Below the pieces are notes generated by a model. The model was not told where the DNA came from. It searched no databases and was given only the letters and a program-made list of their open reading frames with translations. 64,000 nt of DNA from Trypanosoma brucei gambiense DAL972 (taxonomy: Eukaryota > Euglenozoa > Kinetoplastea > Trypanosomatida > Trypanosomatidae), in NCBI RefSeq assembly GCF_000210295.1, contig NC_026740.1, positions 2,124,071-2,188,070 on the forward strand, read 5' to 3'. Position numbers and translations under genes: made by a program. Shown here in pieces: positions 29,456 to 51,195 of the stretch (its first letter is position 1; each line of letters starts with the position of its first letter).

Positions 29456-30683
29456 CTACACTTCATTCAGCATCCTATCGATGTCCTGAGGGTTAAGGAA
29501 GCCCGTGCTGTTCATTGTACTGTTATTGGTTTCGCTGCGCCCCCGACGACTGTGGCGTCGCCCACCCTCGCCACCGCTTTGGTCATCCCAGTCATTAAAA
29601 TCTCCACTACGAGCATTACGGCTGCCATCGCGGTGGCCCCTCCGACGGCTGCGGCTGCGGCGCCCGCGGTCCGCTTGAATATCAGCTTCGTCCTCACCCG
29701 TAACAGAGCGCCCCGGTGAAGTTCCAAAGCCGGAGGGTTCCATGGTTTCTCCCGTCTCCGCCCCGCCGCGGCTATGACTGCGGTCACCCCTCCGTCTGCT
29801 GTGATCCCTGCGGCGACGGCGACTGCGCTCATGCACTTCCCCTCCCTCAGCCTCGTCACCCGTCATACTGCTCTGCATCATTCGCTGCTGCTGTTGTAGT
29901 TGTTGCTGCACATGTTGTTGTTGTTGCTGTTGTAGCTGTTGCCCGTGGGGCTGCATTTGCCCCGGGCTCATGGGTACCTGTGGGTACGAACCGGGTTGGG
30001 CCCCGGCGGCCCAGTTAGAGGCATACCGAAGGCTCGGCATGGATGGATCACGATCAATCGTGCTTTCGTCAACACATGAAGCGAAAAATGGTTTGCCCGT
30101 TCCGGTGAGCAGCCGCCATTGGCTGTCTGAGAAGCCGAGCCGCCTTGTATCCACAAAATCCATAAAGAACATGTCGAGGCGGATGCAGCCCGGCATCTCA
30201 TCTAGGGGAACATCCGGTCGCAAGTTACCAAGCCCGGGATTACACATAGTTCTGTAGATGAGCCAAGGTATGATGAGCACAAACCACAACGCAATCTCAA
30301 TCAGAATGTTTGAAATTGGCCACGCAAGGTAGATCGTCACACAGACGACTGTTGCGATAAACCGCTGATGGAATGCTGTGAGGAACTGCTGTAGCTCGCC
30401 ACTTGCCCTGTCTCTATATTGCTGCGACTGTGCCATGTAGGATGCCATTAGCGTGTACGTCCACGTAACCACAGCAAAACCCATTACGAACCATGCGCAA
30501 CGCATGGTCTCATAGAAGGGTGTGCCATAGACTTGTATGGGATCAGCTGCACCCGTTCTCGGTGACATCTGCAACCCGGGCTGCATCTGGGTATTTTGAC
30601 TGCCTTGTTGTGAGTCGTTAATGGTGGCGTCCAGCTGCCCTTTCACGCTTGGATAGCCCACTGCTGACCCTTGGTGACCCCAT
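29456..30683 (-). CDS. C-terminal part of multi-pass membrane protein, cut by gap
   Basis: Partial frame that enters the 100-N gap at its N-terminal side. It encodes TM segments around FVMGFAVVTWTYTLMASY and FVLIIPWLIYRTM, a glutamine-rich stretch and a long Arg/Ser/Gly-rich tail with many RRR and SRR motifs, ending at 29456. Its first 980 bases repeat the sequence 1185 bases to the right almost perfectly. The most economical reading is that this and the frame starting at 32794 are one gene of about 717 residues, artificially doubled at the gap. A one-C deletion next to the Ns supports low quality there. No family is recognised. Confidence 0.75.
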
Positions 30684-30783
30684 NNNNNNNNNNNNNNNNN
30701 NNNNNNNNNNNNNNNNNNNNNNNNNNNNNNNNNNNNNNNNNNNNNNNNNNNNNNNNNNNNNNNNNNNNNNNNNNNNNNNNNNN
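30684..30783. other. Assembly gap (100 N)
   Basis: A run of 100 N, a conventional length for a gap of unknown size, inside a duplicated coding region. Confidence 0.99.
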
Positions 30784-30900: not shown

Positions 30901-32794
30901 GGAAATTTCCAAAGCCGGGGGGTTCCATGTTTTTTCCGTTCTCCGCCCCGCCGGGGCTATGAGTGCGGTCACCCCTCCGTCTGCTGTGATCCCTGCGGCG
31001 ACGGGGATTGCGGTCATGCACTTCCCCTCCCTCAGCCTCGTCACCCGTCATACTGCTCTGCATCATTCGCTGCTGCTGTTGTAGTTGTTGCTGCACATGT
31101 TGTTGTTGTTGCTGTTGTAGCTGTTGCCCGTGGGGCTGCATTTGCCCCGGGCTCATGGGTACCTGTGGGTACGAACCGGGTTGGGCCCCGGCGGCCCAGT
31201 TAGAGGCATACCGAAGGCTCGGCATGGATGGATCACGATCAATCGTGCTTTCGTCAACACATGAAGCGAAAAATGGTTTGCCCGTTCCGGTGAGCAGCCG
31301 CCATTGGCTGTCTGAGAAGCCGAGCCGCCTTGTATCCGCAAAATCCATAAAGAACATGTCGAGGCGGATGCAGCCCGGCATCTCATCTAGGGGAACATCC
31401 GGTCGCAAGTTACCAAGCCCGGGATTACACATAGTTCTGTAGATGAGCCAAGGTATGATGAGCACAAACCACAACGCAATCTCAATCAGAATGTTTGAAA
31501 TTGGCCACGCAAGGTAGATCGTCACACAGACGACTGTTGCGATAAACCGCTGATGGAATGCTGTGAGGAACTGCTGTAGCTCGCCACTTGCCCTGTCTCT
31601 ATATTGCTGCGACTGTGCCATGTAGGATGCCATTAGCGTGTACGTCCACGTAACCACAGCAAAACCCATTACGAACCATGCGCAACGCATGGTCTCATAG
31701 AAGGGTGTGCCATAGACTTGTATGGGATCAGCTGCACCCGTTCTCGGTGACATCTGCAACCCGGGCTGCATCTGGGTATTTTGACTGCCTTGTTGTGAGT
31801 CGTTAATGGTGGCGTCCAGCTGCCCTTTCACGCTTGGATAGCCCACTGCTGACCCTTGGTGACCCCCATGTTGATGTTGACTTGATGCCAGAGGATCGTT
31901 CTCATCGTTTGCCCCCCTGTTGCTCCGGCGGTGGAAGTTGATCAAATAAGCATACAAAAGAGTGAAGAGGGAATATATCATGGCCAGGAAATACATGGCG
32001 TTCCGTTGCGTACTCCACGTTTTCAGCTGTACTGTAAGTGCGAAAGCATCGATACCATCCCCCATGCACAACCTTGAATCGGTAAAGAATCCGTCAGTGC
32101 ACCCACCGCTACTGGAAACAATATTACTGTTTATTTTCGCCTGTAGGGCCCTCGTGTTCGGCACCTTAAACTTGACAAGGATGTTGTCTTTGTCGCCAAG
32201 CGACATTATAGTGGCGAAGGCCGAGGTACTGAGCAGAAAGAAAAATACCATAGCGACAAATGTCCTATCACACATGGAGGCACAACAATTCAGTGGCCCC
32301 CCCGGCTCGGTGGGCGGTCCACAACAATACGGATTCGTCCCTTCGGTGGCGGTGCAGCAGCAACCACTACTGGCGGCACCCGGCCTCTCATAGTTGCAAC
32401 AACCCGGTACCGCGGCCGCTTCAGAGTACCTTCGGTCGTACATATTGGGGTTCCCCCTGTATCCCTGATAATTTGGCGGTGGGTAACCCCACATTGGTTG
32501 CTGCCCGTTGGAGTCTCCTTGCATTTGCTGCTGCTGAAATTGCTGCGGCGGTGCTTGCTGCATCTGCATCTGTTGTTGCCGCTGCTGCTGCATCTGTTGC
32601 TGTGGTATTTGCTGCATTTGGGCATCCGGCAACATTTGCGTATGCATTTGTTGTTGTGGTTGCTGTGGCTGCTGCGGAGGTGTACCATTTGAATATCCGC
32701 TGTAAGGCCGCGCATATGGCATGCTGTACCCACTGTTTGCAGCATTCCATTGCTGCATGTTGCCAGGTGGGCTCATTTGTTGCTGTGGGTACAT
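30901..32794 (-). CDS. N-terminal and central part of multi-pass membrane protein
   Basis: Starts at the ATG at 32794; the frame to 32827 begins with TTG. A Gln/Pro/Met-rich N-terminus (about 120 residues) is followed by a cluster of ten cysteines (about 131-175). Next come TM1 (FVAMVFFFLLSTSAFATIM), a loop with two cysteines, TM2 (YFLAMIYSLFTLLYAYLI), TM3 (FVMGFAVVTWTYTLMASY) and one or two further TMs. The cysteine cluster just before TM1 suggests palmitoylation or a metal site, which is inference. The four-TM plan with a Cys-bearing first loop recalls amastins or claudin-like proteins, but I see no amastin signature. The 3' end of this copy runs into poor sequence near the gap, and the intact C-terminus is in the left copy. 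Confidence 0.78.
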
Positions 32795-39878: not shown

Positions 39879-40699
39879 CGTGGGGAAGGGGATGGAGAGT
39901 CAGAGTCTTGATGCAAAAACCTGTGGATCCGGCTCCTTGTCCACGAGTGTGAGCGTTTTTTTCCCCTACCCAATCCCTGTTCCTCCTTCTCACCCTGTAT
40001 GTGTTTGTTCACTTGCTGCTAGTCTACCGCGCCGACACGTGTGGTCCCAAGAATTATGCGCCCCTTTTGCTCCTTTTCGACACACTAGCTAGTCACTTGC
40101 GGGCAACACTCCCCACGTTATGCTTTCGTACCCAACGACGGCAGCGTATTGTCCTTACAAGCTAACCCGTAAACCTTCCTTGTTTTTTTTCCCCTCACAG
40201 ATGGTATGACAAAAAGAGCACTTGGGAAACAAAGGCAGTTCCCGAGTGAACGAAGGCAGAAGCAAAAATATAATGGCAGGGGTAACCTTACGACTTTCTT
40301 CACCCTTACTGCTGGTTGTTTCCTCTACCTGGTGGCCACTGAGGAGGGAATAAGATGGGGGGAGCTGAGGAGAACGAAATGGAAGGGCAACAAACACGTT
40401 AACTTGCAAATACCTGCGGGACGCACGAACTTCGTTGCAAAGCATCAGCCATCCGCCGTCACACGTCTGCATCTCAGAGGCACCGGTACTGTTACTGCTG
40501 TACTGGCGTGCATCCTCACGACGGATACATAAATATACGCTTGGTCGCTAGGTCTCGGTAGCTGGTAGGTGCCATTCCGCATCTGATCGCATACTTCATA
40601 TAAAGCCTACGGGGAAAACGCGTGTCCTCTGTGCATTTTTCTCCCTTCGCCGCGCCCAAACGGCCATCGTCCAGCCCGTTCACCGCACTCATTGACATA
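39879..40699. other. Intergenic spacer
   Basis: About 820 bases between LSm3 and CRK2, no supported gene. Confidence 0.55.
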
Positions 40700-40949: not shown

Positions 40950-41670
40950 TCAAACAGGGCGCGAGAAGTTTGCATCACACGCGATCGGCAATGGAAGGAT
41001 AAGAGCGCGAAAAAAGATTAAAAAGATAAAATACGGAAAGAATCAGCATTTCAATGGGAAACGAAAATCGTTGTTAACGGTAGCCAAGGAGTCAGAGGGG
41101 ACCAATTGAAGTCAGCGGGGTGGGGTGGGGGGCGGAGAAAAATAAGGTAAAAAGATGGGGCAAAACGAGGCTTGCTCAAGACAAGAAGACACAAAGAGGG
41201 AAGCGCGCGTGGACAAATGGAAATGACGAAAGAGGCGACGACACATCTACTCAACTTCGTAAACCTCATCTAGTGCCCTTCATCTGCGGCTTCATCAAGC
41301 AGTAAAAAGAGCACAGTGCACCTTTACGCTGCGCATCGTTCCACCCGGTTAGCACCTGGGAGCGAAGTGCCCCTGCCGGTCCGGCCACAACTCCTTTTCT
41401 AACCTTCTTTCTGCCATTCCTCCTGCTTTCCCTCTCTAAGAGGCTGTTACATGAGGGCTCGACAGGAATCACATCTCGAAAGAAGGCGACGCAGCGAACA
41501 CCAAAGCAACAATGGGACAATCCCAACGCATCTCCTTTTTCAGCTTCGTGGAGGATTTGCATGTTCATGAGACTGCTTATGAAAAAAAAAAAGGAGTAAT
41601 GACACAACACAGGGGGCAAAGCAGGGGAGGGACAAACCCTTCCTCCTTCCCTCACACACACCTATTGCAC
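40950..41670. other. Intergenic spacer, including LSm3 AG-free zone
   Basis: About 720 bases between LSm3 and the repeat protein. No gene is supported. The part nearest LSm3 is the AG-free zone; an A12 run lies at 41581-41592. Confidence 0.6.
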
Positions 41671-44600
41671 TTATCGCACTTCGGAAAGTGACGCAACCCA
41701 CTTGGCGGCATCCCCTACCATCTCCTCCAACAGATTTTCAAGAGCATGACCTAACACCAACTGCGTGATTCCTGCACGGCGACTGTCCATGCCGAGTGTA
41801 CCGGCACGACTTCCTGCATAGCACGGCGATCCCAGAGACCTTTGAGTCCCAGAATTCCCCAGACCATCTTCTCCACCTACCGCCAAAAGCGATGCAGACG
41901 CTGAAGATGATAAGGCCCCATTACCGTCGTTACGCTCGAAAAGATTCTCGCGCAACCGCGCCTCACAGTAAAAGTCCTCCGCATTGTTGGTGCCCTTGCG
42001 CACCAGCTCTGTATAATGGTATGCAAGAAATCGAATATCACTGGGTTGTAGCCTCCCAAAGAGGCACTGTGGGGAGACGAGGCCAGCCGACCGTGACAGA
42101 GCCTCCTCTGAGGATAGAAAGGCTTCCTCATACCAAACGAACTCGTCCAGTCGCTGCAACTTCTCCCTTGAGGCCACTGTGATATAGTCGGAGGCTAGCC
42201 TTTCAGCCAAAGCACTGAGGCCCGCACGCCATTCTCCGGACAGCCCCCCCTCCCCCATCGCCGCAGCGGCAACCGAAATAATACTTTGGCTTAAAGTGCT
42301 CTCAATTGTTGAATAGGAAAGCAGACCGGGATGCGCTAAAGCCTCCAATGCCGTCCCCGCTCCCTCTACCAAGTAGTTGATAACAGAATCTACCATGAAC
42401 GCAGTGAACCGCTTCTCACAATTTCCAGCGTGCGCACTATACAGCAAAGAGGGGTCTGAAGGCGTAACCGTACCACTGTGCTCACCTTGCTTTTCAACTA
42501 AACGATTGGGACCACCCTCAGCAATAGACAACTCTACCACTGAATATATAGAAGGTGACTCACTAGAACCACTGATTACGCAATCAACAGACGCAACACC
42601 ACCACCATTTAATTCGCCGACACAACTAAGCGTACCCTGGGTACCACAGTCGGGGCTTGGCAATGCACAGCTTCCGTACAACGTAGAGCTCCCGCCATGA
42701 TAAAACTCAGAAGTTCCGGAAGAACAAACATCGTTATTAATCAGCATAGCAACGGTACTTATTCCGCTCGACAACACGTATTCCGTCACAGCCTCAGCAG
42801 CACCAACACAAGCTTCACCTCCACGAAAAGTATCCAGCAACGACATAGACATCACAGATTCCAACTCACCGCTATAGGCCACATCATCAACGACACAACC
42901 AAAACTACAAACACCACCACAACAAACAGATGTAGCATCTTCGAAGCACTCTGATATCAAATTTACACACAAAGAACGCAAGCAATCAATAATAAAAAGC
43001 TTATCACCAAACACTGCCGCCCCTTCACCATCAACCCCCAACTGTTCATCCTCTTCAGTCTTGAGACGAGATTCCTCTTCAGCTTCTAGACGGGCGTCTT
43101 CCATTGCACGCGCACTGGCAATATGCCGTGAGAAGGCATCATTAAGGCTTTGCCTTATTATGTCGTCAGAGAGGGTTCTCACACGATCGATAATGTGTTC
43201 TTTACCTTCTAAGAGAGTAACAGCCTCTTCTTCAGCCTTGAAACGAGCTTCCTCTTCAGCCTTGAGACGAGCTTCCTCTTCAGCCTTGAGACGAGCTTCC
43301 TCTTCAGCCTTGAGACGAGCTTCCTCTTCAGCCTTGAAACGAGCTTCCTCTTCAGCCTTGAAACGAGCTTCCTCTTCAGCCTTGAGACGAGCTTCCTCTT
43401 CAGCTTCTAGACGGGCGTCTTCCATTGCACGCGCACTGGCAATATGCCGTGAGAAGGCATCATTAAGGCTTTGCCTTATTATGTCGTCAGAGAGGGCTCT
43501 CACACGATCGATAATGTGTTCTTTACCTTCTAAGAGAGTAACAGCCTCTTCTTCAGCCTTGAGACGAGCTTCCTCTTCAGCCTTGAGACGAGCTTCCTCT
43601 TCAGCCTTGAGACGAGCTTCCTCTTCAGCCTTGAGACGAGCTTCCTCTTCAGCCTTGAAACGAGCTTCCTCTTCAGCCTTGAAACGAGCTTCCTCTTCAG
43701 CCTTGAGACGAGCTTCCTCTTCAGCCTTGAAACGAGCTTCCTCTTCAGCCTTGAGACGAGCTTCCTCTTCAGCCTTGAAACGAGCTTCCTCTTCAGCCTT
43801 GAAACGAGCTTCCTCTTCAGCCTTGAGACGAGCTTCCTCTTCAGCCTTGAGACGAGCTTCCTCTTCAGCCTTGAGACGAGCTTCCTCTTCAGCCTTGAGA
43901 CGAGCTTCCTCTTCAGCCTTGAGACGAGCTTCCTCTTCAGCCTTGAGACGAGCTTCCTCTTCAGCCTTGAAACGAGCTTCCTCTTCAGCCTTGAAACGAG
44001 CTTCCTCTTCAGCCTTGAAACGAGCTTCCTTTTCAGCCTTGAGACGAGCTTCCTCTTCAGCTTCTAGACGGGCGTCTTCCATTGCACGCGCACTGGCAAT
44101 ATGCCGTGAGAAGGCATCATTAAGGCTTGCCTTATTATGTCGTCAGAGAGGGCTCTCACACGATCGATGATGTGTTCTTTACCTTCTAAGAGAGTAACAG
44201 CTTCTTCTTCAGCCTTGAGACGAGCTTCCTCTTCAGCCTTGAGACGAGCTTCCTCTTCAGCCTTGAGACGAGCTTCCTCTTCAGCCTTGAGACGAGCTTC
44301 CTCTTCAGCCTTGAAACGAGCTTCCTCTTCAGCCTTGAGACGAGCTTCCTCTTCAGCCTTGAGACGAGCTTCCTCTTCAGCCTTGAAACGAGCTTCCTCT
44401 TCAGCCTTGAGACGAGCTTCCTCTTCAGCCTTGAAACGAGCTTCCTCTTCAGCCTTGAAACGAGCTTCCTCTTCAGCCTTGAGACGAGCTTCCTCTTCAG
44501 CCTTGAAACGAGCTTCCTCTTCAGCCTTGAAACGAGCTTCCTCTTCGGCCTTGAGACGAGCTTCCTCTTCAGCTTCTAGACGGGCGTCTTCCATTGCACG

Positions 44601-47600
44601 CGCACTGGCAATATGCCGTGAGAAGGCATCATTAAGGCTTTGCCTTATTATGTCGTCAGAGAGGGCTCTCACACGATCGATAATGTGTTCTTTACCTTCT
44701 AAGAGAGTAACAGCCTCTTCTTCAGCCTTGAAACGAGCTTCCTCTTCAGCCTTGAAACGAGCTTCCTCTTCAGCCTTAAAACGAGCTTCCTCTTCAGCCT
44801 TGAGACGAGCTTCCTCTTCAGCCTTGAAACGAGCTTCCTCTTCAGCCTTGAAACGAGCTTCCTCTTCAGCCTTGAAACGAGCTTCCTCTTCAGCCTTGAG
44901 ACGAGCTTCCTCTTCAGCCTTGAGACGAGCTTCCTCTTCAGCCTTGAGACGAGCTTCCTCTTCAGCCTTGAAACGAGCTTCCTCTTCGGCCTTGAGACGA
45001 GCTTCCTCTTCAGCCTTGAAACGAGCTTCCTTTTCAGCCTTGAGACGAGATTCCTCTTCAGCTTCTAGACGGGCGTCTTCCATTGCACGCGCACTGGCAA
45101 TATGCCGTGAGAAGGCATCATTAAGGCTTTGCCTTATTATGTCGTCAGAGAGGGCTCTCACACGATCGATAATGTGTTCTTTACCTTCTAAGAGAGTAAC
45201 AGCCTCTTCTTCAGCCTTGAGACGAGCTTCCTCTTCAGCCTTGAAACGAGATTCCTCTTCAGCTTCTAGACGGGCGTCTTCCATTGCACGCGCACTGGCA
45301 ATATGCCGTGAGAAGGCATCATTAAGGCTTTGCCTTATTATGTCGTCAGAGAGGGCTCTCACACGATCGATAATGTGTTCTTTACCTTCTAAGAGAGTAA
45401 CAGCCTCTTCTTCAGCCTTGAGACGAGCTTCCTCTTCAGCCTTGAGACGAGCTTCCTCTTCAGCCTTGAGACGAGCTTCCTCTTCAGCCTTGAAACGAGC
45501 TTCCTCTTCAGCCTTGAAACGAGCTTCCTCTTCAGCCTTGAGACGAGCTTCCTCTTCAGCCTTGAAACGAGCTTCCTCTTCAGCCTTGAAACGAGCTTCC
45601 TCTTCAGCCTTGAGACGAGCTTCCTCTTCAGCCTTGAGTCTCGCCTCTTCTTCAGCTTTGAGTCTCGCCTCTTCTTCAGCTCTGAGTCTCGCCTCTTCTT
45701 CAGCTTTGAGTCTCGCCTCTTCTTCAGCTCTGAGTCTCGCCTCTTCTTCAGCTTTGAGTCTCGCCTCTTCTTCAGCTTTGAGTCTCGCCTCTTCTTCAGC
45801 TTTGAGTCTCGCCTCTTCTTCAGCTTTGAGACGAGCCTCTTCTTCAGCTTTGAGTCTCGCCTCTTCTTCAGCTCTGAGTCTCGCCTCTTCTTCAGCTTTG
45901 ATTCGTGCCTCTTCTTCAGCTTTGAGTTTCGCCTCTTCTTCAGCTTTGAGTCTCGCCTCTTCTTCAGCTCTGAGTTTCGCCTCTTCTTCAGCTTTTATTC
46001 GTGCCTCTTCTTCAGCTTTGAGTTTCGCCTCTTCTTCAGCTCTGATTCGTGCCTCTTCTTCAGCTTTGATTCGTGCCTCTTCTTCAGCTCTGAGTTTCGC
46101 CTCTTCTTCAGCTTTGAGTCTCGCCTCTTCTTCAGCTCTGATTCGTGCCTCTTCTTCAGCCTTGAAACGAGCTTCCTCTTCAGCCTTGAGACGAGCTTCC
46201 TCTTCAGCCTTGAGACGAGCTTCCTCTTCAGCCTTGAAACGAGCTTCCTTTTCAGCCTTGAGACGAGATTCCTCTTCAGCTTCTAGACGGGCGTCTTCCA
46301 TTGCACGCGCACTGGCAATATGCCGTGAGAAGGCATCATTAAGGCTTTGCCTTATTATGTCGTCAGAGAGGGCTCTCACACGATCGATAATGTGTTCTTT
46401 ACCTTCTAAGAGAGTAACAGCCTCTTCTTCAGCCTTGAAACGAGCTTCCTCTTCAGCCTTGAGACGAGCTTCCTCTTCAGCCTTGAGACGAGCTTCCTCT
46501 TCAGCCTTAAAACGAGCTTCCTCTTCAGCCTTGAGACGAGCTTCCTCTTCAGCCTTGAAACGAGCTTCCTCTTCAGCCTTGAAACGAGCTTCCTCTTCAG
46601 CCTTGAAACGAGCTTCCTCTTCAGCCTTGAGACGAGCTTCCTCTTCAGCCTTGAGACGAGCTTCCTCTTCAGCCTTGAAACGAGCTTCCTCTTCGGCCTT
46701 GAGACGAGCTTCCTCTTCAGCCTTGAAACGAGCTTCCTCTTCAGCCTTGAGACGAGATTCCTCTTCAGCTTCTAGACGGGCGTCTTCCATTGCACGCGCA
46801 CTGGCAATATGCCGTGAGAAGGCATCATTAAGGCTTTGCCTTATTATGTCGTCAGAGAGGGCTCTCACACGATCGATAATGTGTTCTTTACCTTCTAAGA
46901 GAGTAACAGCCTCTTCTTCAGCCTTGAGACGAGCTTCCTCTTCAGCCTTGAGACGAGCTTCCTCTTCAGCCTTGAGACGAGCTTCCTCTTCAGCCTTGAA
47001 ACGAGCTTCCTCTTCAGCCTTGAAACGAGCTTCCTCTTCAGCCTTGAGACGAGCTTCCTCTTCAGCCTTGAAACGAGCTTCCTCTTCAGCCTTGAAACGA
47101 GCTTCCTCTTCAGCCTTGAGACGAGCTTCCTCTTCAGCCTTGAGTCTCGCCTCTTCTTCAGCTTTGAGTCTCGCCTCTTCTTCAGCTCTGAGTTTCGCCT
47201 CTTCTTCAGCTTTGAGTCTCGCCTCTTCTTCAGCTCTGAGTCTCGCCTCTTCTTCAGCTTTGAGTCTCGCCTCTTCTTCAGCTTTGAGTCTCGCCTCTTC
47301 TTCAGCTTTGAGTCTCGCCTCTTCTTCAGCTTTGAGACGAGCCTCTTCTTCAGCTCTGAGTTTCGCCTCTTCTTCAGCTCTGAGTCTCGCCTCTTCTTCA
47401 GCTTTGATTCGTGCCTCTTCTTCAGCTTTGAGTTTCGCCTCTTCTTCAGCTTTGAGTCTCGCCTCTTCTTCAGCTCTGAGTTTCGCCTCTTCTTCAGCTT
47501 TTATTCGTGCCTCTTCTTCAGCTTTGAGTTTCGCCTCTTCTTCAGCTCTGATTCGTGCCTCTTCTTCAGCTTTGATTCGTGCCTCTTCTTCAGCTCTGAG

Positions 47601-49004
47601 TTTCGCCTCTTCTTCAGCTTTGAGTTTCGCCTCTTCTTCAGCTCTGAGTCTCGCCTCTTCTTCAGCCTTGACACGAGCTTCTTCTTCAGCTCTGAGTCTC
47701 GCCTCTTCTTCAAGAGATGGAGCGTGTTGAGAGGCGTGAATCGTAATTTCCTTTTGTTTTGTGCATGCGTGCTGTGCTGTGGGGTAGTTTGTTTCAATCC
47801 GTGAGGTAGTGTGAGTTTGTTTTCGTTCGATTTCCGTTCGATCGCTAAAATTTTGGCTTTGTGTTTTAGAGCTGTAACTTTTTTCTTCAAAATGTTTTGT
47901 TGGTTCGTGTGTTTCTTTTGCTTGTATAGCGAGGGTTTGTGTTGCTTTGTTTTCTGTTGGTGCCGGGTTTGTGTTTTGTATACGTTGAGTATGTCTTGTG
48001 ATTGTCGTTCTTTCACCAGCTGGTTGTCGCGTTATGAGCGAGATGGTGTTGAAAGCAGACGGAGCTTCTGTATTGATATTGTTGTGGTTGTTACTTTTGT
48101 AGTGTTTGTGTGCTTGTTCATCGTACTTGTTGTGCCGCTGCTCGTGGATTACTTTTTTCTGTGTGTCTTGTATTATACTTGATGAAAAGCAGTGACTTGT
48201 CTCTAGGTTATTACCATTCCCTGTACTTCGAGGTGGGCACCATGGGTCTGTGAATAGTTTGTTGCTTTGCTGTGACAACTGCACCGACTCTCTTGCTTTG
48301 TCTGCTTGTTGCAGCCCGTGGGGACCACTTACTTTTCCTGCTGATGTTGGTTGGTGGTGCAGATGTGCGCTCACATGTTGTGCTGATAGCAAGACTAGTA
48401 TTTTTTCCTCTCGGAAGGCGGCTGCAATGATAAGACGCTTCTTCTCGTACTTGTGAACTATCTCGCGGCGGGTGTGTGCTTCAGCTAAGACGACTGCGAA
48501 CATCGCGGATGAGTGTTTTCGTGTCTCATAATCGTCGGAAAGCAGTGATGTTGGAGGCCTTGTGACAGAATCCCCCCTTTTTTTGTATTCCTTCGAGGAC
48601 CGCGTACCCGCTATGGGTTGCTGTTCTGACACAAAACCTGGACCTAGTTGACATCCAGTGTATGCCCGCAGTGCCGGTTGTGTGGTCTCCGTTTGGACGT
48701 CATGGCTGCTACTCCGATGGGGCTGTTGAGCGGTCGTGGTTTTGGTGTCCCGCTTCCTCTTTGAACTAGATATTGGTTCTTCAGCCGCAGCGGCACATGT
48801 CCTATCGTGGTTTCCAAGGAACGCTTTCTGCGCCTCCCTTAATCTATGAATCTCTTCTTTTAGTCCATTAAGCTCCACACGGCTTCCTCCTTCTTTTTTG
48901 AGGCGCCTAAACTCTTCTATGAGCCACCCAGTCCGCTGTATATCTTCCAAGACCGCCAACGCATTAATGTGCACGACCGCCTTATCGCGGTGGGGTGGTG
49001 GCAT
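41671..49004 (-). CDS. Giant octapeptide-repeat protein, interrupted by a 1-bp frameshift
   Basis: Two abutting frames, 49004-44064 and 44082-41671, are one gene of about 2444 residues if the missing base near 44127 is an error. Order: a short coiled-coil N-terminus (LEDIQRTGWLIEEFRRLKKE), a basic low-complexity region, then roughly 140 copies of the octapeptide A-R-L/F/I-K-A-E-E-E. These are interrupted eight times by a 43-residue module containing HIIDRVRALSDDIIRQSLND. A non-repetitive C-terminal domain of about 430 residues follows. The repeats alternate acidic and basic residues with period eight, which suits a long single alpha-helix more than a two-stranded coiled coil. No enzyme domain, signal peptide or TM segment is seen. 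Long repeat proteins of this kind in trypanosomes are often cytoskeletal; that is inference. Not recognised by name. Confidence 0.8.
42943..43022 (-). other. Divergent ninth copy of the 43-residue module (protein level)
   Basis: The C-terminal domain begins with DKLFIIDCLRSLCVNLISEC followed by FEDATS. It lines up with the module phrase GKEHIIDRVRALSDDIIRQS followed by LNDAFS. Confidence 0.55.
43225..47715. repeat. 24-bp coding repeat array with eight 129-bp modules
   Basis: About 140 tandem 24-bp units encode the octapeptide. Two nucleotide families use different codons for the same peptide: one makes up most of the array, the other fills two blocks at about 45635-46150 and 47143-47710. The 129-bp module recurs with a fixed sequence landmark at 43211, 43532, 44188, 44701, 45190, 45391, 46408 and 46897. 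The two blocks of the second family sit at the same place relative to modules 1506 bp apart, so a roughly 1.5-kb stretch was duplicated as a unit. Confidence 0.92.
44127..44128 (-). other. Single-base deletion causing frameshift in the repeat gene
   Basis: In this module the plus strand has TT where the other seven copies have TTT (in TAAGGCTTTGCC). The reading frame shifts and stops after 22 residues. All other intervals between modules leave remainder 9 when divided by 24; the interval spanning this site leaves 8. Confidence 0.9.
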
Positions 49005-50187: not shown

Positions 50188-51195
50188 TTACTTCTTGACA
50201 ACAACAATACCCTTTGTCCCTCCGTGAACAAAACATTCGTCCCACACGTCTGGCATCTTCTCCAAAGAAGGCGCCACGACCGTCGGGTACTTGAACCCCA
50301 CAGAAGACAGTTGCTGCAAAACAACCTCCAGTTGTGTTTGCCGCTCTTCATATGAAAGTGACGCTAGATATGATGGAAGAAGGAACCCCTCCATTGTTAC
50401 CTCGTTAAAGATTATGTTGGACCCGGAGATCATCAGTCCCACACCGCTTTGTGCACCGTAAGACACTGCGTGACCCCCTTTCCCAAGAAGCCCGAGAAAC
50501 GTATCGAAGTGCCGGCCACCAATGGCGTTGAGGTACAGTGCTGCAGCGGAACCACCCAGTGCTTGACGCATCGCTCGGGATCCCTTTCCATTGTACTCGA
50601 ATACCTCGCTGCCGTATTCGGCATGGCGTTGTTTTGCCTTGTCGAACCGCTCACCTGGGGTACTGGCCGTCAGAACTCGGAAACCGAGGAGTTTACCCAA
50701 AGCTGCCACGGCAAGGGATGTAGCACTGCTACCGCCGTTCTGCACGATGACTTGTCCCTTACGTAAAGATGTAAAACCATTGACGAGGCGATGTGCAGTT
50801 ATGTAGTTAGAAGCGTTCACCGCAAGTGGAATGTATTTGGAATCGATTTTATGTACGGAGTTGCAAGGCACAGCAACTCGCGTTGCCCATAACCCATTCA
50901 GCGGCGCTACCCAAACTGTGTCCCCTTCCTTTATAACACTGGAGCCGTTGTTGGCGACCACTACACCAACACCCTCAGAGCCACCTACCCTTGGGAAGGA
51001 AGGGAGTTGCAGCCGACGTCGACCCAGCACACTGCCATTCACCACCGCCGCGTCTACACGGTGAAGCGGTGCTTGTAACACATCAACTACTACTTCGTTC
51101 CCTTTTGGAACAATTTCCATGGTCTCGTACTTCAAGACATGGGCGATCGGTCCACACCGAGTATACAGCCACGCCTTCGAAGACAGCTTCGACAT
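50188..51195 (-). CDS. Zinc-type (MDR) dehydrogenase, mitochondrial enoyl reductase-like
   Basis: 335 residues of the medium-chain dehydrogenase/reductase superfamily, closest in pattern to mitochondrial 2-enoyl thioester reductase (MECR/Etr1), the last step of type II fatty acid synthesis. Shared phrases are VGGSEGVGVVV, EGDTVWVAPLNGLWATRVAV, ITAHRLVNGFTSLRKGQVIV, QNGGSSATSLAVAALGKLLG (nucleotide-binding), LYLNAIGG and MEGFLLPSYL. No zinc ligands are present, as expected for this branch. The usual catalytic tyrosine of the N-P-x-D-I-N-x-I-Q-G-x-Y motif is not found: the segment here reads HRVDAAVVNGSV. Either another residue serves or the substrate differs. The start is the first ATG, with an acceptor AG only 6 nt upstream. 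Confidence 0.75.
   Translation of the reverse strand: MSKLSSKAWLYTRCGPIAHVLKYETMEIVPKGNEVVVDVLQAPLHRVDAAVVNGSVLGRRRLQLPSFPRVGGSEGVGVVVANNGSSVIKEGDTVWVAPLNGLWATRVAVPCNSVHKIDSKYIPLAVNASNYITAHRLVNGFTSLRKGQVIVQNGGSSATSLAVAALGKLLGFRVLTASTPGERFDKAKQRHAEYGSEVFEYNGKGSRAMRQALGGSAAALYLNAIGGRHFDTFLGLLGKGGHAVSYGAQSGVGLMISGSNIIFNEVTMEGFLLPSYLASLSYEERQTQLEVVLQQLSSVGFKYPTVVAPSLEKMPDVWDECFVHGGTKGIVVVKK

What the first reader, a model, noticed from the sequence alone, without database searches (positions are those of the whole stretch)
43225..47715. Octapeptide array written in two codon dialects
About 140 units of A-R-L/F/I-K-A-E-E-E are encoded by two 24-bp families that differ at several synonymous positions, for example GCT CGT CTC AAG against GCG AGA CTC AAA. 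The second family appears only in two blocks (about 45635-46150 and 47143-47710). Seeing the same peptide with different codons suggests selection on the protein, with two separate local expansions. The period of eight turns the hydrophobic residue around the helix, so a very long single alpha-helix is more likely than a coiled coil.
Basis: partly seen in the sequence, partly recalled or inferred. Interest (0 to 1): 0.75.

Follow-up and report, generated by a model that had tools for sequence, protein, structure and literature searches.

The report
Trypanosome helical rod with repeating linkers
A trypanosome gene carries about 150 copies of an eight-residue charged-helix unit in two different DNA spellings, interrupted by eight copies of a second motif; it most likely encodes a long stiff protein rod whose coding repeat may share DNA ancestry with arrays in unrelated genes of the same genome.

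Summary
The array is real. The two codon dialects are discrete (127 of 142 scored units pure; 13 of the 15 mixed units sit at block edges or junctions). The two dialect-B blocks are not separate expansions: they lie in a 934-bp duplication, 99.4% identical. The commonest A and B units differ at six bases without changing the peptide, so protein-level selection is likely. Sequence and an AlphaFold model favour single alpha-helix blocks over a coiled coil, but linkers interrupt them.

Relatives in T. theileri, T. grayi and T. cruzi keep the C-terminal domain, but their charged units have 8-10 residues and lack the leucine.

Unrelated genes of this genome (a DOCK-type GEF; a C11 pair) carry the same octad. 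Dialect A shares silent codons with them more than chance (P=0.01), dialect B does not (P=0.62); eight codons only, uncorrected. One linker copy is a base shorter and splits the frame. Function is inferred: extended spacer with repeated docking helices.

The parts
47703..49004 (-). N-terminal 434 residues, polar (T/S/Q/H-rich), net charge +12; no paralogue in own genome, no Pfam match
   Evidence: homologue search of residues 1-440 gave nothing at E<=0.001 (candidates limited to 0.55-1.75 times 1646 aa)
43072..47702 (-). Array: 150 octads in nine blocks (33, 15, 37, 3, 15, 16, 22, 8, 1) separated by eight linkers
47151..47702 (-). Dialect-B block, first copy (GCG AGA CTC AAA GCT GAA GAA GAG and variants), at the N-terminal edge of the array
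45645..46148 (-). Dialect-B block, second copy, set abruptly inside dialect-A units
46714..47647 (-). Segmental duplication copy 1 (B units + A units + linker), 934 bp, 6 mismatches to copy 2
45208..46141 (-). Segmental duplication copy 2, shifted by 1506 bp from copy 1
46782..46907 (-). Linker 1 (42 aa)
46293..46418 (-). Linker 2
45276..45401 (-). Linker 3
45075..45200 (-). Linker 4
44586..44711 (-). Linker 5
44074..44198 (-). Linker 6, one base shorter than the other copies (and not otherwise identical to them); the reading frame changes here
43417..43542 (-). Linker 7
43096..43221 (-). Linker 8 (1 base different from the other six intact copies)
42928..43002 (-). Degenerate linker-like copy at the head of the C-terminal region (KLFIIDCLRSLCVNLISECFEDATS)
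   Evidence: local alignment against 1000 shuffles P=0.004
41674..42375 (-). Conserved part of the C-terminal domain, shared with T. cruzi, T. conorhini, T. grayi and T. theileri relatives at 43-50% over 51-57% of the query

Best explanation
The feature is the central part of one large trypanosome protein: a polar N-terminus, then a rod of charged single-alpha-helix (SAH) blocks built from A-R/K-L/F/I-K/R-A-E-E-E octads, broken at eight places by a 42-residue amphipathic linker, then a conserved C-terminal domain. Shown: the anatomy, the two discrete codon dialects, the segmental copying, the unchanged peptide between the commonest A and B units, the conserved C-terminus in other Trypanosoma species and the different E/A/R/K-rich units in the three relatives that reach into the array. 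Inferred: the octads act as a stiff monomeric spacer (about 44 nm for the longest block of 37 octads, about 230 nm if the whole array were one straight helix, at 0.15 nm per residue), the linkers are repeated docking or hinge helices along it, and the array is kept uniform by unequal exchange and gene conversion while selection mainly asks for a charged helix.
For: Octads: SAH-like helical-net score 0.365 for a 264-residue stretch (own weights, EEEEKKK = 1; published cut-off of the method I imitated is 0.25); composition-matched shuffles mean 0.135 (500, maximum 0.187); no hydrophobic seam triples and no power at period 3.5. AlphaFold2 on 302 residues, single sequence: two helices 2-144 and 148-301, mean pLDDT 80.6, the break lying in the second of its two linkers. 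Dialects: 6 changes, peptide unchanged, random expectation 2.5e-5; 127 of 142 units pure, expected pure fraction if the five marks were independent 0.14. Copying: 934 bp at 99.4%, further segments of about 300-800 bp at 97-99%; six of seven intact linkers identical over 126 bases. Relatives: conserved C-terminus in five other Trypanosoma species (T. equiperdum, T. cruzi, T. conorhini, T. grayi, T. theileri); charged units of 8, 9 and 10 residues (T. theileri) and 10 residues (T. grayi, and one spacing in T. cruzi) lacking L/F/I.
Against: AlphaFold without an alignment may draw charged repeats as helices whatever their state, and a monomer job cannot show dimers; it also drew the first linker as unbroken helix. 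My SAH weights are my own, not the published matrices. The octads carry three uncharged residues in eight, and PMC5812594 (section 7) reports aggregation of alanine-rich designs. Not all A-B differences are silent: other B units (AKLR form) differ from A by 8 bases with 3.5 replacement steps, and Nei-Gojobori path averaging scores even the commonest pair as 5.0 silent and 1.0 replacement. Linker homology to other species is weak: T. brucei against T. theileri P=0.016, T. grayi 0.15, T. cruzi 0.77; a profile of the other species' linkers did not find the T. brucei linker (rank 1045 of 3708 reported), although it ranked the degenerate C-terminal copy first, barely above the best shuffle (11.5 against 11.1 bits). 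The C-terminal fold is unknown (pLDDT 35.9). No localisation or interaction data were found.
Confidence: 0.62

Rival explanations
1. The array is a dimeric coiled coil, and the protein is an ordinary filament-forming rod.
For: The linkers hold hydrophobic seams (9.8 triples per 100 residues) and could dimerise; long E/K/R/A-rich repeats are often called coiled coils (recalled).
Against: Octad stretch: 0 seam triples, spectral power about 0.01 at period 3.5 against 29.6 at 8/3 and 16.9 at 8; the units of the three relatives that reach into the array lack the hydrophobic residue.
Confidence: 0.15
2. It is a neutral coding minisatellite: the peptide is uniform only because the DNA is copied, with no selection on the protein.
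For: Within family A the most frequent change is a replacement (L/F) and silent sites hardly vary (0.087 silent against 0.657 replacement codon differences per pair; within B 0.61 against 1.25); six of seven intact linkers are identical also at silent sites.
Against: Between A and B, 4.3 silent against 1.3 replacement codon differences per pair (87 A and 40 B units), the latter mostly conservative (R/K, L/F/I); the frame stays open through the array apart from one place; three relatives keep charged repeats there.
Confidence: 0.15
3. The array is mainly an immune decoy: a repetitive B-cell antigen expanded under host antibody pressure.
For: Tandem-repeat proteins are known trypanosome antigens (GM6, PMC3808341, search listing only); proteins named kinetoplast DNA-associated protein appear among T. 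cruzi antigen candidates (PMC7093460, PMC3522711, PMC5648266, passages), but I could not show that these are the same protein and the epitopes listed are not octads.
Against: Between species repeat chemistry rather than sequence is kept, which an epitope model does not predict. I ran no signal-peptide or membrane prediction, so surface exposure was not tested.
Confidence: 0.12
4. It is a kinetoplast DNA-binding protein, as the names of its T. cruzi, T. conorhini and T. grayi relatives say.
For: Source names among P0004-P0008.
Against: Net charge with linkers -134 and -41 for the two array parts, -34 for the C-terminal region: an acidic protein apart from its N-terminus (+12). No DNA-binding family matched. 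The name may be a transfer from other A/E/K-rich repeat proteins (inference).
Confidence: 0.06

Closest known systems
Natural single alpha-helix (SAH/CSAH) domains, e.g. myosin 10, INCENP (PMC5812594: sections 7, 14, 15 and passages read; PMC4571873: abstract start in search listing)
   Same: E/K/R/A-rich, i to i+4 salt bridges, no hydrophobic seam, spacer between other parts
   Different: An octad repeated about 150 times; the survey reports that natural SAHs have no common pattern and that E4(K/R)4 octads are extremely rare; here blocks alternate with amphipathic linkers
'Kinetoplast DNA-associated protein' entries of T. cruzi, T. conorhini, T. grayi; uncharacterised protein of T. theileri (P0004-P0009)
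   Same: Conserved C-terminal domain (43-50% over 51-57% of the query); in P0006, P0008 and P0009 charged repeats with interspersed linker-like segments before it
   Different: Units of 8-10 residues without the hydrophobic residue; DNA association unsupported by charge
Octad arrays in unrelated genes of the same genome: DOCK-family GEF on C3, 1287/1286-aa pair on C11; E/A/R/K arrays in the DUF7759 pair on C4 and C8
   Same: ARLRAEEE octads (32; 106 and 89) or AEEAARKK/AEEEAARKK-type units; silent codons of C3 and C11 partly shared with dialect A
   Different: Different flanking domains; the 42-aa linker was found only in the chromosome-7 gene; flanking DNA not alike
A-kinase-anchoring (RII/D-D docking) helices (recalled)
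   Same: Linker and C-terminal helix show paired hydrophobics about every four residues, best helical angle 85-92 degrees in six of six segments looked at
   Different: No RII-binding family among the Pfam matches; segments were picked by eye; individually only two of six exceed shuffles at P<0.05

Membership tests
Single alpha-helix (SAH) domain | High density of i,i+3/i,i+4 opposite charges above cut-off | tested here: met
   0.36 against cut-off 0.25, own weights, not the published matrices
Single alpha-helix (SAH) domain | No hydrophobic seam of coiled-coil type | tested here: met
   0 seam triples in 264 residues of octads; not met in the linker (9.8 per 100)
Single alpha-helix (SAH) domain | Monomeric and helical in solution | not testable with these tools
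   AlphaFold draws a helix; monomer state needs biophysics
Coiled coil | Heptad or hendecad hydrophobic periodicity | tested here: not met
   Power about 0 at 3.5, 3.6 and 11/3 in the octads
Trypanosoma protein with conserved C-terminal domain (named kinetoplast DNA-associated protein) | Conserved C-terminal domain | tested here: met
   E 6e-56 to 1e-47 for T. cruzi, T. conorhini, T. theileri, T. grayi; alignment A1
Trypanosoma protein with conserved C-terminal domain (named kinetoplast DNA-associated protein) | Charged helical array with interspersed linker before it | tested here: inconclusive
   Charged stretches and linker-like segments seen in P0006, P0008, P0009; linker sequence similarity weak; P0003-P0005 and P0007 are short models and lack the region
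Kinetoplast DNA-binding protein | DNA binding or kinetoplast location | not testable with these tools
   Acidic charge speaks against it
AKAP-like RII-binding helix | Match to an RII-binding family model | tested here: not met
   Pfam scans at E up to 10 and 0.1: none listed; HMMER's filters drop most weak matches, so this is a weak test for so short a motif
Cornifin PF02389 and DUF2345 PF10106 | True domain rather than compositional match | tested here: inconclusive
   Scores above cut-off, best stretches in the repeat; judged compositional

The most novel reading that the evidence does not exclude
The octad is a rod-coding cassette that has moved between unrelated genes of one genome by ectopic recombination. 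Dialect B would be the resident or an independently arisen version, while dialect A is DNA kin of the arrays in the DOCK gene (C3) and the C11 pair; selection then kept all versions close to the same peptide. Unrelated genes would thus gain ready-made stiff spacers from a minisatellite, and the linkers would make the chromosome-7 rod a scaffold with repeated docking sites.
Probability: 0.25. Interest if true: 0.72.

Novelty: new variant of a known kind. Interest (0 to 1): 0.5.

Why it matters
It separates DNA copying from protein selection in one gene: nearly the same peptide in two spellings that share no more codons than chance, while related species keep charged repeats but not the octad. 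If the shared spelling with unrelated genes reflects transfer, it shows how a mechanical protein element can spread within a genome as a minisatellite, and the two-dialect array would be a marker for such exchange. It also gives long natural single-helix candidates to test: 37 octads without interruption here, and 66 in the C11 gene, in this assembly.

Tried and rejected
Homologue search with the N-terminal 440 residues: none at E<=0.001 among 7988 scored candidates. PDB matches (six distinct sequences; five) are composition-level matches to other E/K/A-rich proteins and a designed protein; not used as evidence of kinship. Pfam Cornifin/DUF2345/DUF6757 matches judged compositional (DUF6757 was below its cut-off). 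Paralogue search of the C-terminal and N-terminal pieces in the own genome: only the gene itself, the C-terminal piece also its linkers. AlphaFold of the C-terminal region: pLDDT 35.9, not used and no fold search made. Gradual drift between dialects: rejected. Further linker copies in the C-terminal region: none beyond the degenerate one (P=0.63 after removing its first 60 residues); a period-4 hydrophobic pattern written after seeing the sequence occurs 4 times there against 0.9 in shuffles (P=0.035). Flanks of the C3, C11 and window arrays: four comparisons, none beyond the shuffles' maximum; one (C3-C11 5') scored 21 against a 95% point of 20. Codon sharing: 15 pairs, then five sets of pairs (all 26 observed against 15.25, P=0.0027; across genes 23 against 12.3, P=0.00075; window against others 16 against 9.7, P=0.011; A against others 11 against 4.85, P=0.00065; B against others 5 against 4.84, P=0.57). 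One search treats the C3 and C11 units as independent although they share 7 of 8 codons, so its P values are too small; with both held fixed A gives P=0.010 and B 0.62. All are uncorrected, and the null is codon usage of 13 ORFs of this window only. Linker profile test: negative for the T. brucei linker itself. Literature: searches listed no paper that I recognised as describing this array; listings only, open-access library, no supplements, so this does not show that it is unpublished. The gene's place between Tb927.7.7380 (LSm3, PMC9136415 passage) and Tb927.7.7410 (a chromosome-7 oxidoreductase, PMC4743696 passages) is inferred: a zinc-dehydrogenase-like ORF lies at 50188-51195, but neither of two small ORFs given to Pfam (window 40158-40472 and 41269-41661) matched a family, so LSm3 was not located. 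A search of six ids Tb927.7.7370 to 7410 found papers on 7410 and 7380 only. The strain name (T. b. gambiense DAL972) is recalled, from 22,148,088 bases in 11 contigs.
Full report
WHAT IS THERE. The window lies on contig C7 of a 22,148,088-base, 11-contig genome. A 99%-identical T. equiperdum protein places it in the T. brucei group; the strain name is recalled. The finding sits in one gene on the minus strand. It reads as two ORFs, 44064-49004 (1646 aa) and 41671-44082 (803 aa), because linker 6 is a base shorter than the others (125 against 126 bases). Since the part behind the break is open and conserved in other species, a sequence or assembly error or a very recent lesion is more likely than an old pseudogene; I cannot tell which.

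ANATOMY. The N-terminal 434 residues are polar and without relatives in my searches. Then come 150 octads in nine blocks of 33, 15, 37, 3, 15, 16, 22, 8 and 1 (counted), separated by eight linkers. Seven linkers are intact and 42 residues long; six are identical at all 126 bases and one differs by one base. The C-terminal 466 residues start with a degenerate linker-like copy (P=0.004 against 1000 shuffles) and carry the conserved domain; no further copy stands out (P=0.63).

TWO DIALECTS. I scored five codons in 142 units (the eight linker-terminal ARLE units dropped). 87 are pure A, 40 pure B, 15 mixed. Of the mixed ones eight are the last unit before a linker, three are A/B junctions (47150, 46172, 45644), two open the array (47702, 47678), and two (47342, 45836) are a mosaic inside the B block that recurs at the same place in both copies. 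If marks were independent only 14% would be pure. So the families do not grade into each other. The commonest A and B units differ at 6 of 24 bases with the same peptide; 2.5e-5 of random sets of six changes would do that. Nei-Gojobori path averaging scores the pair as 5.0 silent and 1.0 replacement steps, because one arginine change can pass through another residue; the AKLR form of B differs from A by 8 bases with 3.5 replacement steps. Between families there are 4.3 silent and 1.3 replacement codon differences per pair; within A 0.09 and 0.66; within B 0.61 and 1.25. Thus inside a family copying has outrun selection, and mainly the A-B comparison shows selection.

ONE EXPANSION, THEN A COPY. 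The strongest self-match is 46714-47647 against 45208-46141: 934 bp, six mismatches, spanning B units, A units and a linker. Rare variants (an ATA codon, the mosaic unit) recur in register. The second B block is therefore best read as a segmental copy of the first, set among A units.

HELIX TYPE. A 264-residue octad stretch scores 0.365 on a helical-net score with my own weights, modelled on the published description (PMC5812594), against a mean of 0.135 for 500 shuffles; it has no hydrophobic seam and no heptad or hendecad power. AlphaFold2 on 302 residues gives helices 2-144 and 148-301 at mean pLDDT 80.6; the break is in the second linker of the piece, the first is drawn as unbroken helix. 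This was a single-sequence monomer job and cannot rule out dimers.

RELATIVES. Six proteins matched the C-terminal 466 residues and three a second search with other length limits, one of them new. P0006 (T. cruzi), P0008 (T. grayi) and P0009 (T. theileri) also reach into the array: spacings there are 8, 9 and 10 residues, with one of 11, of AE2-5ARRK type (T. theileri), mostly 10 of AEEEAEAKRR type (T. grayi) and one spacing of 10 in the short T. cruzi stretch. They lack L/F/I in the unit. The other four entries do not cover the region. Linker-like segments lie beside the charged stretches in all three, but their similarity to the T. brucei linker is weak: P=0.016, 0.15 and 0.77 for T. theileri, T. 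grayi, T. cruzi; among themselves T. grayi-T. cruzi is clear (0 of 2000 shuffles), T. theileri-T. cruzi 0.055, T. theileri-T. grayi 0.12. A profile of them missed the T. brucei linker while ranking its degenerate C-terminal copy first of 3708 with E=0.068, just above the best shuffle. I regard orthology of the linkers as likely from context, not proven.

THE SAME OCTAD ELSEWHERE IN THE GENOME. A protein search with a B block gave 32 matches, this gene included (the tool says counts of repeats are lower bounds). Outside this gene the strong ones are a 2326-aa ORF on C3 with 32 ARLRAEEE units and DOCK-C2 (E 1.7e-21) and DHR-2 (E 2.7e-5, just under the curated cut-off) matches; a pair on C11 with 106 and 89 units, the second holding an assembly gap; and a DUF7759 pair on C4 and C8 with different charged units. 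The commonest C3 and C11 units are GCA CGT CTC AGA GCT GAG GAG GAA and GCA CGT CTC AGA GCT GAA GAG GAA. A and B share 3 of 8 codons, the chance level (2.95 expected); C3 and C11 share 7 of 8 (P=0.0014); A and C11 6 of 7 (P=0.006). With the C3 and C11 units held fixed, dialect A shares 11 codons with them (mean 4.8, P=0.010), dialect B 5 (mean 4.8, P=0.62). An earlier version that drew C3 and C11 independently gave A P=0.00065, which is too small. These tests rest on eight codons and are not corrected for the several sets tried. Flanking DNA is not alike. Either octad DNA has been exchanged between unrelated genes, or array growth favours certain spellings, or it is chance; I cannot separate these here.

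FUNCTION. Inference: a long, stiff, acidic spacer (net charge -134 and -41 for the two array parts with linkers) with repeated amphipathic linkers as hinge or docking helices. The linkers and the conserved last helix show best hydrophobic angles of 85-92 degrees in six of six segments, the four-residue rhythm of A-kinase-anchoring helices (recalled), but I chose the segments by eye, only two of six pass P<0.05, and no Pfam model agrees. The name 'kinetoplast DNA-associated protein' of relatives is not supported by this charge.

VERDICT. The gene is a new variant of a known kind (SAH-type repeat protein). The most interesting open point is the partly shared spelling with unrelated genes.

Noticed in passing
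L009/L010, G000:C3:1425466-1432446: DOCK-family GEF gene with 32 ARLRAEEE octads near its N-terminus
   Followed up: partly
L011/L012/L013, G000:C11:4071558-4075421 and 4075953-4079813: Tandem pair with identical first 378 residues and 106/89 octads, 66 in a row in the first; the second frame runs through an assembly gap and ends in different sequence
   Followed up: partly
L014 (C8:1866022-1868913) and L015 (C4:1356069-1360577): Pair with a shared C-terminal DUF7759 domain but charged repeats of different period (octads AEEAARKK; nonads AEEEAARKK and AEEEAERMK)
   Followed up: no
window 44074-44198: One linker copy is one base shorter than the others and changes the reading frame; may be an assembly error
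   Followed up: partly
window 44137-47730, + strand: 1197-codon antisense ORF, taken as a by-product of the 24-bp period
   Followed up: partly
window 30684-30783: Run of 100 N, an assembly gap, with the same TGCTGTTGT-type tract on either side, 29886-29942 and 31071-31127, 1185 bp apart
   Followed up: no
P0003 (T. equiperdum): 99% identical relative whose model begins inside the C-terminal region, so the array is missing from that model
   Followed up: no
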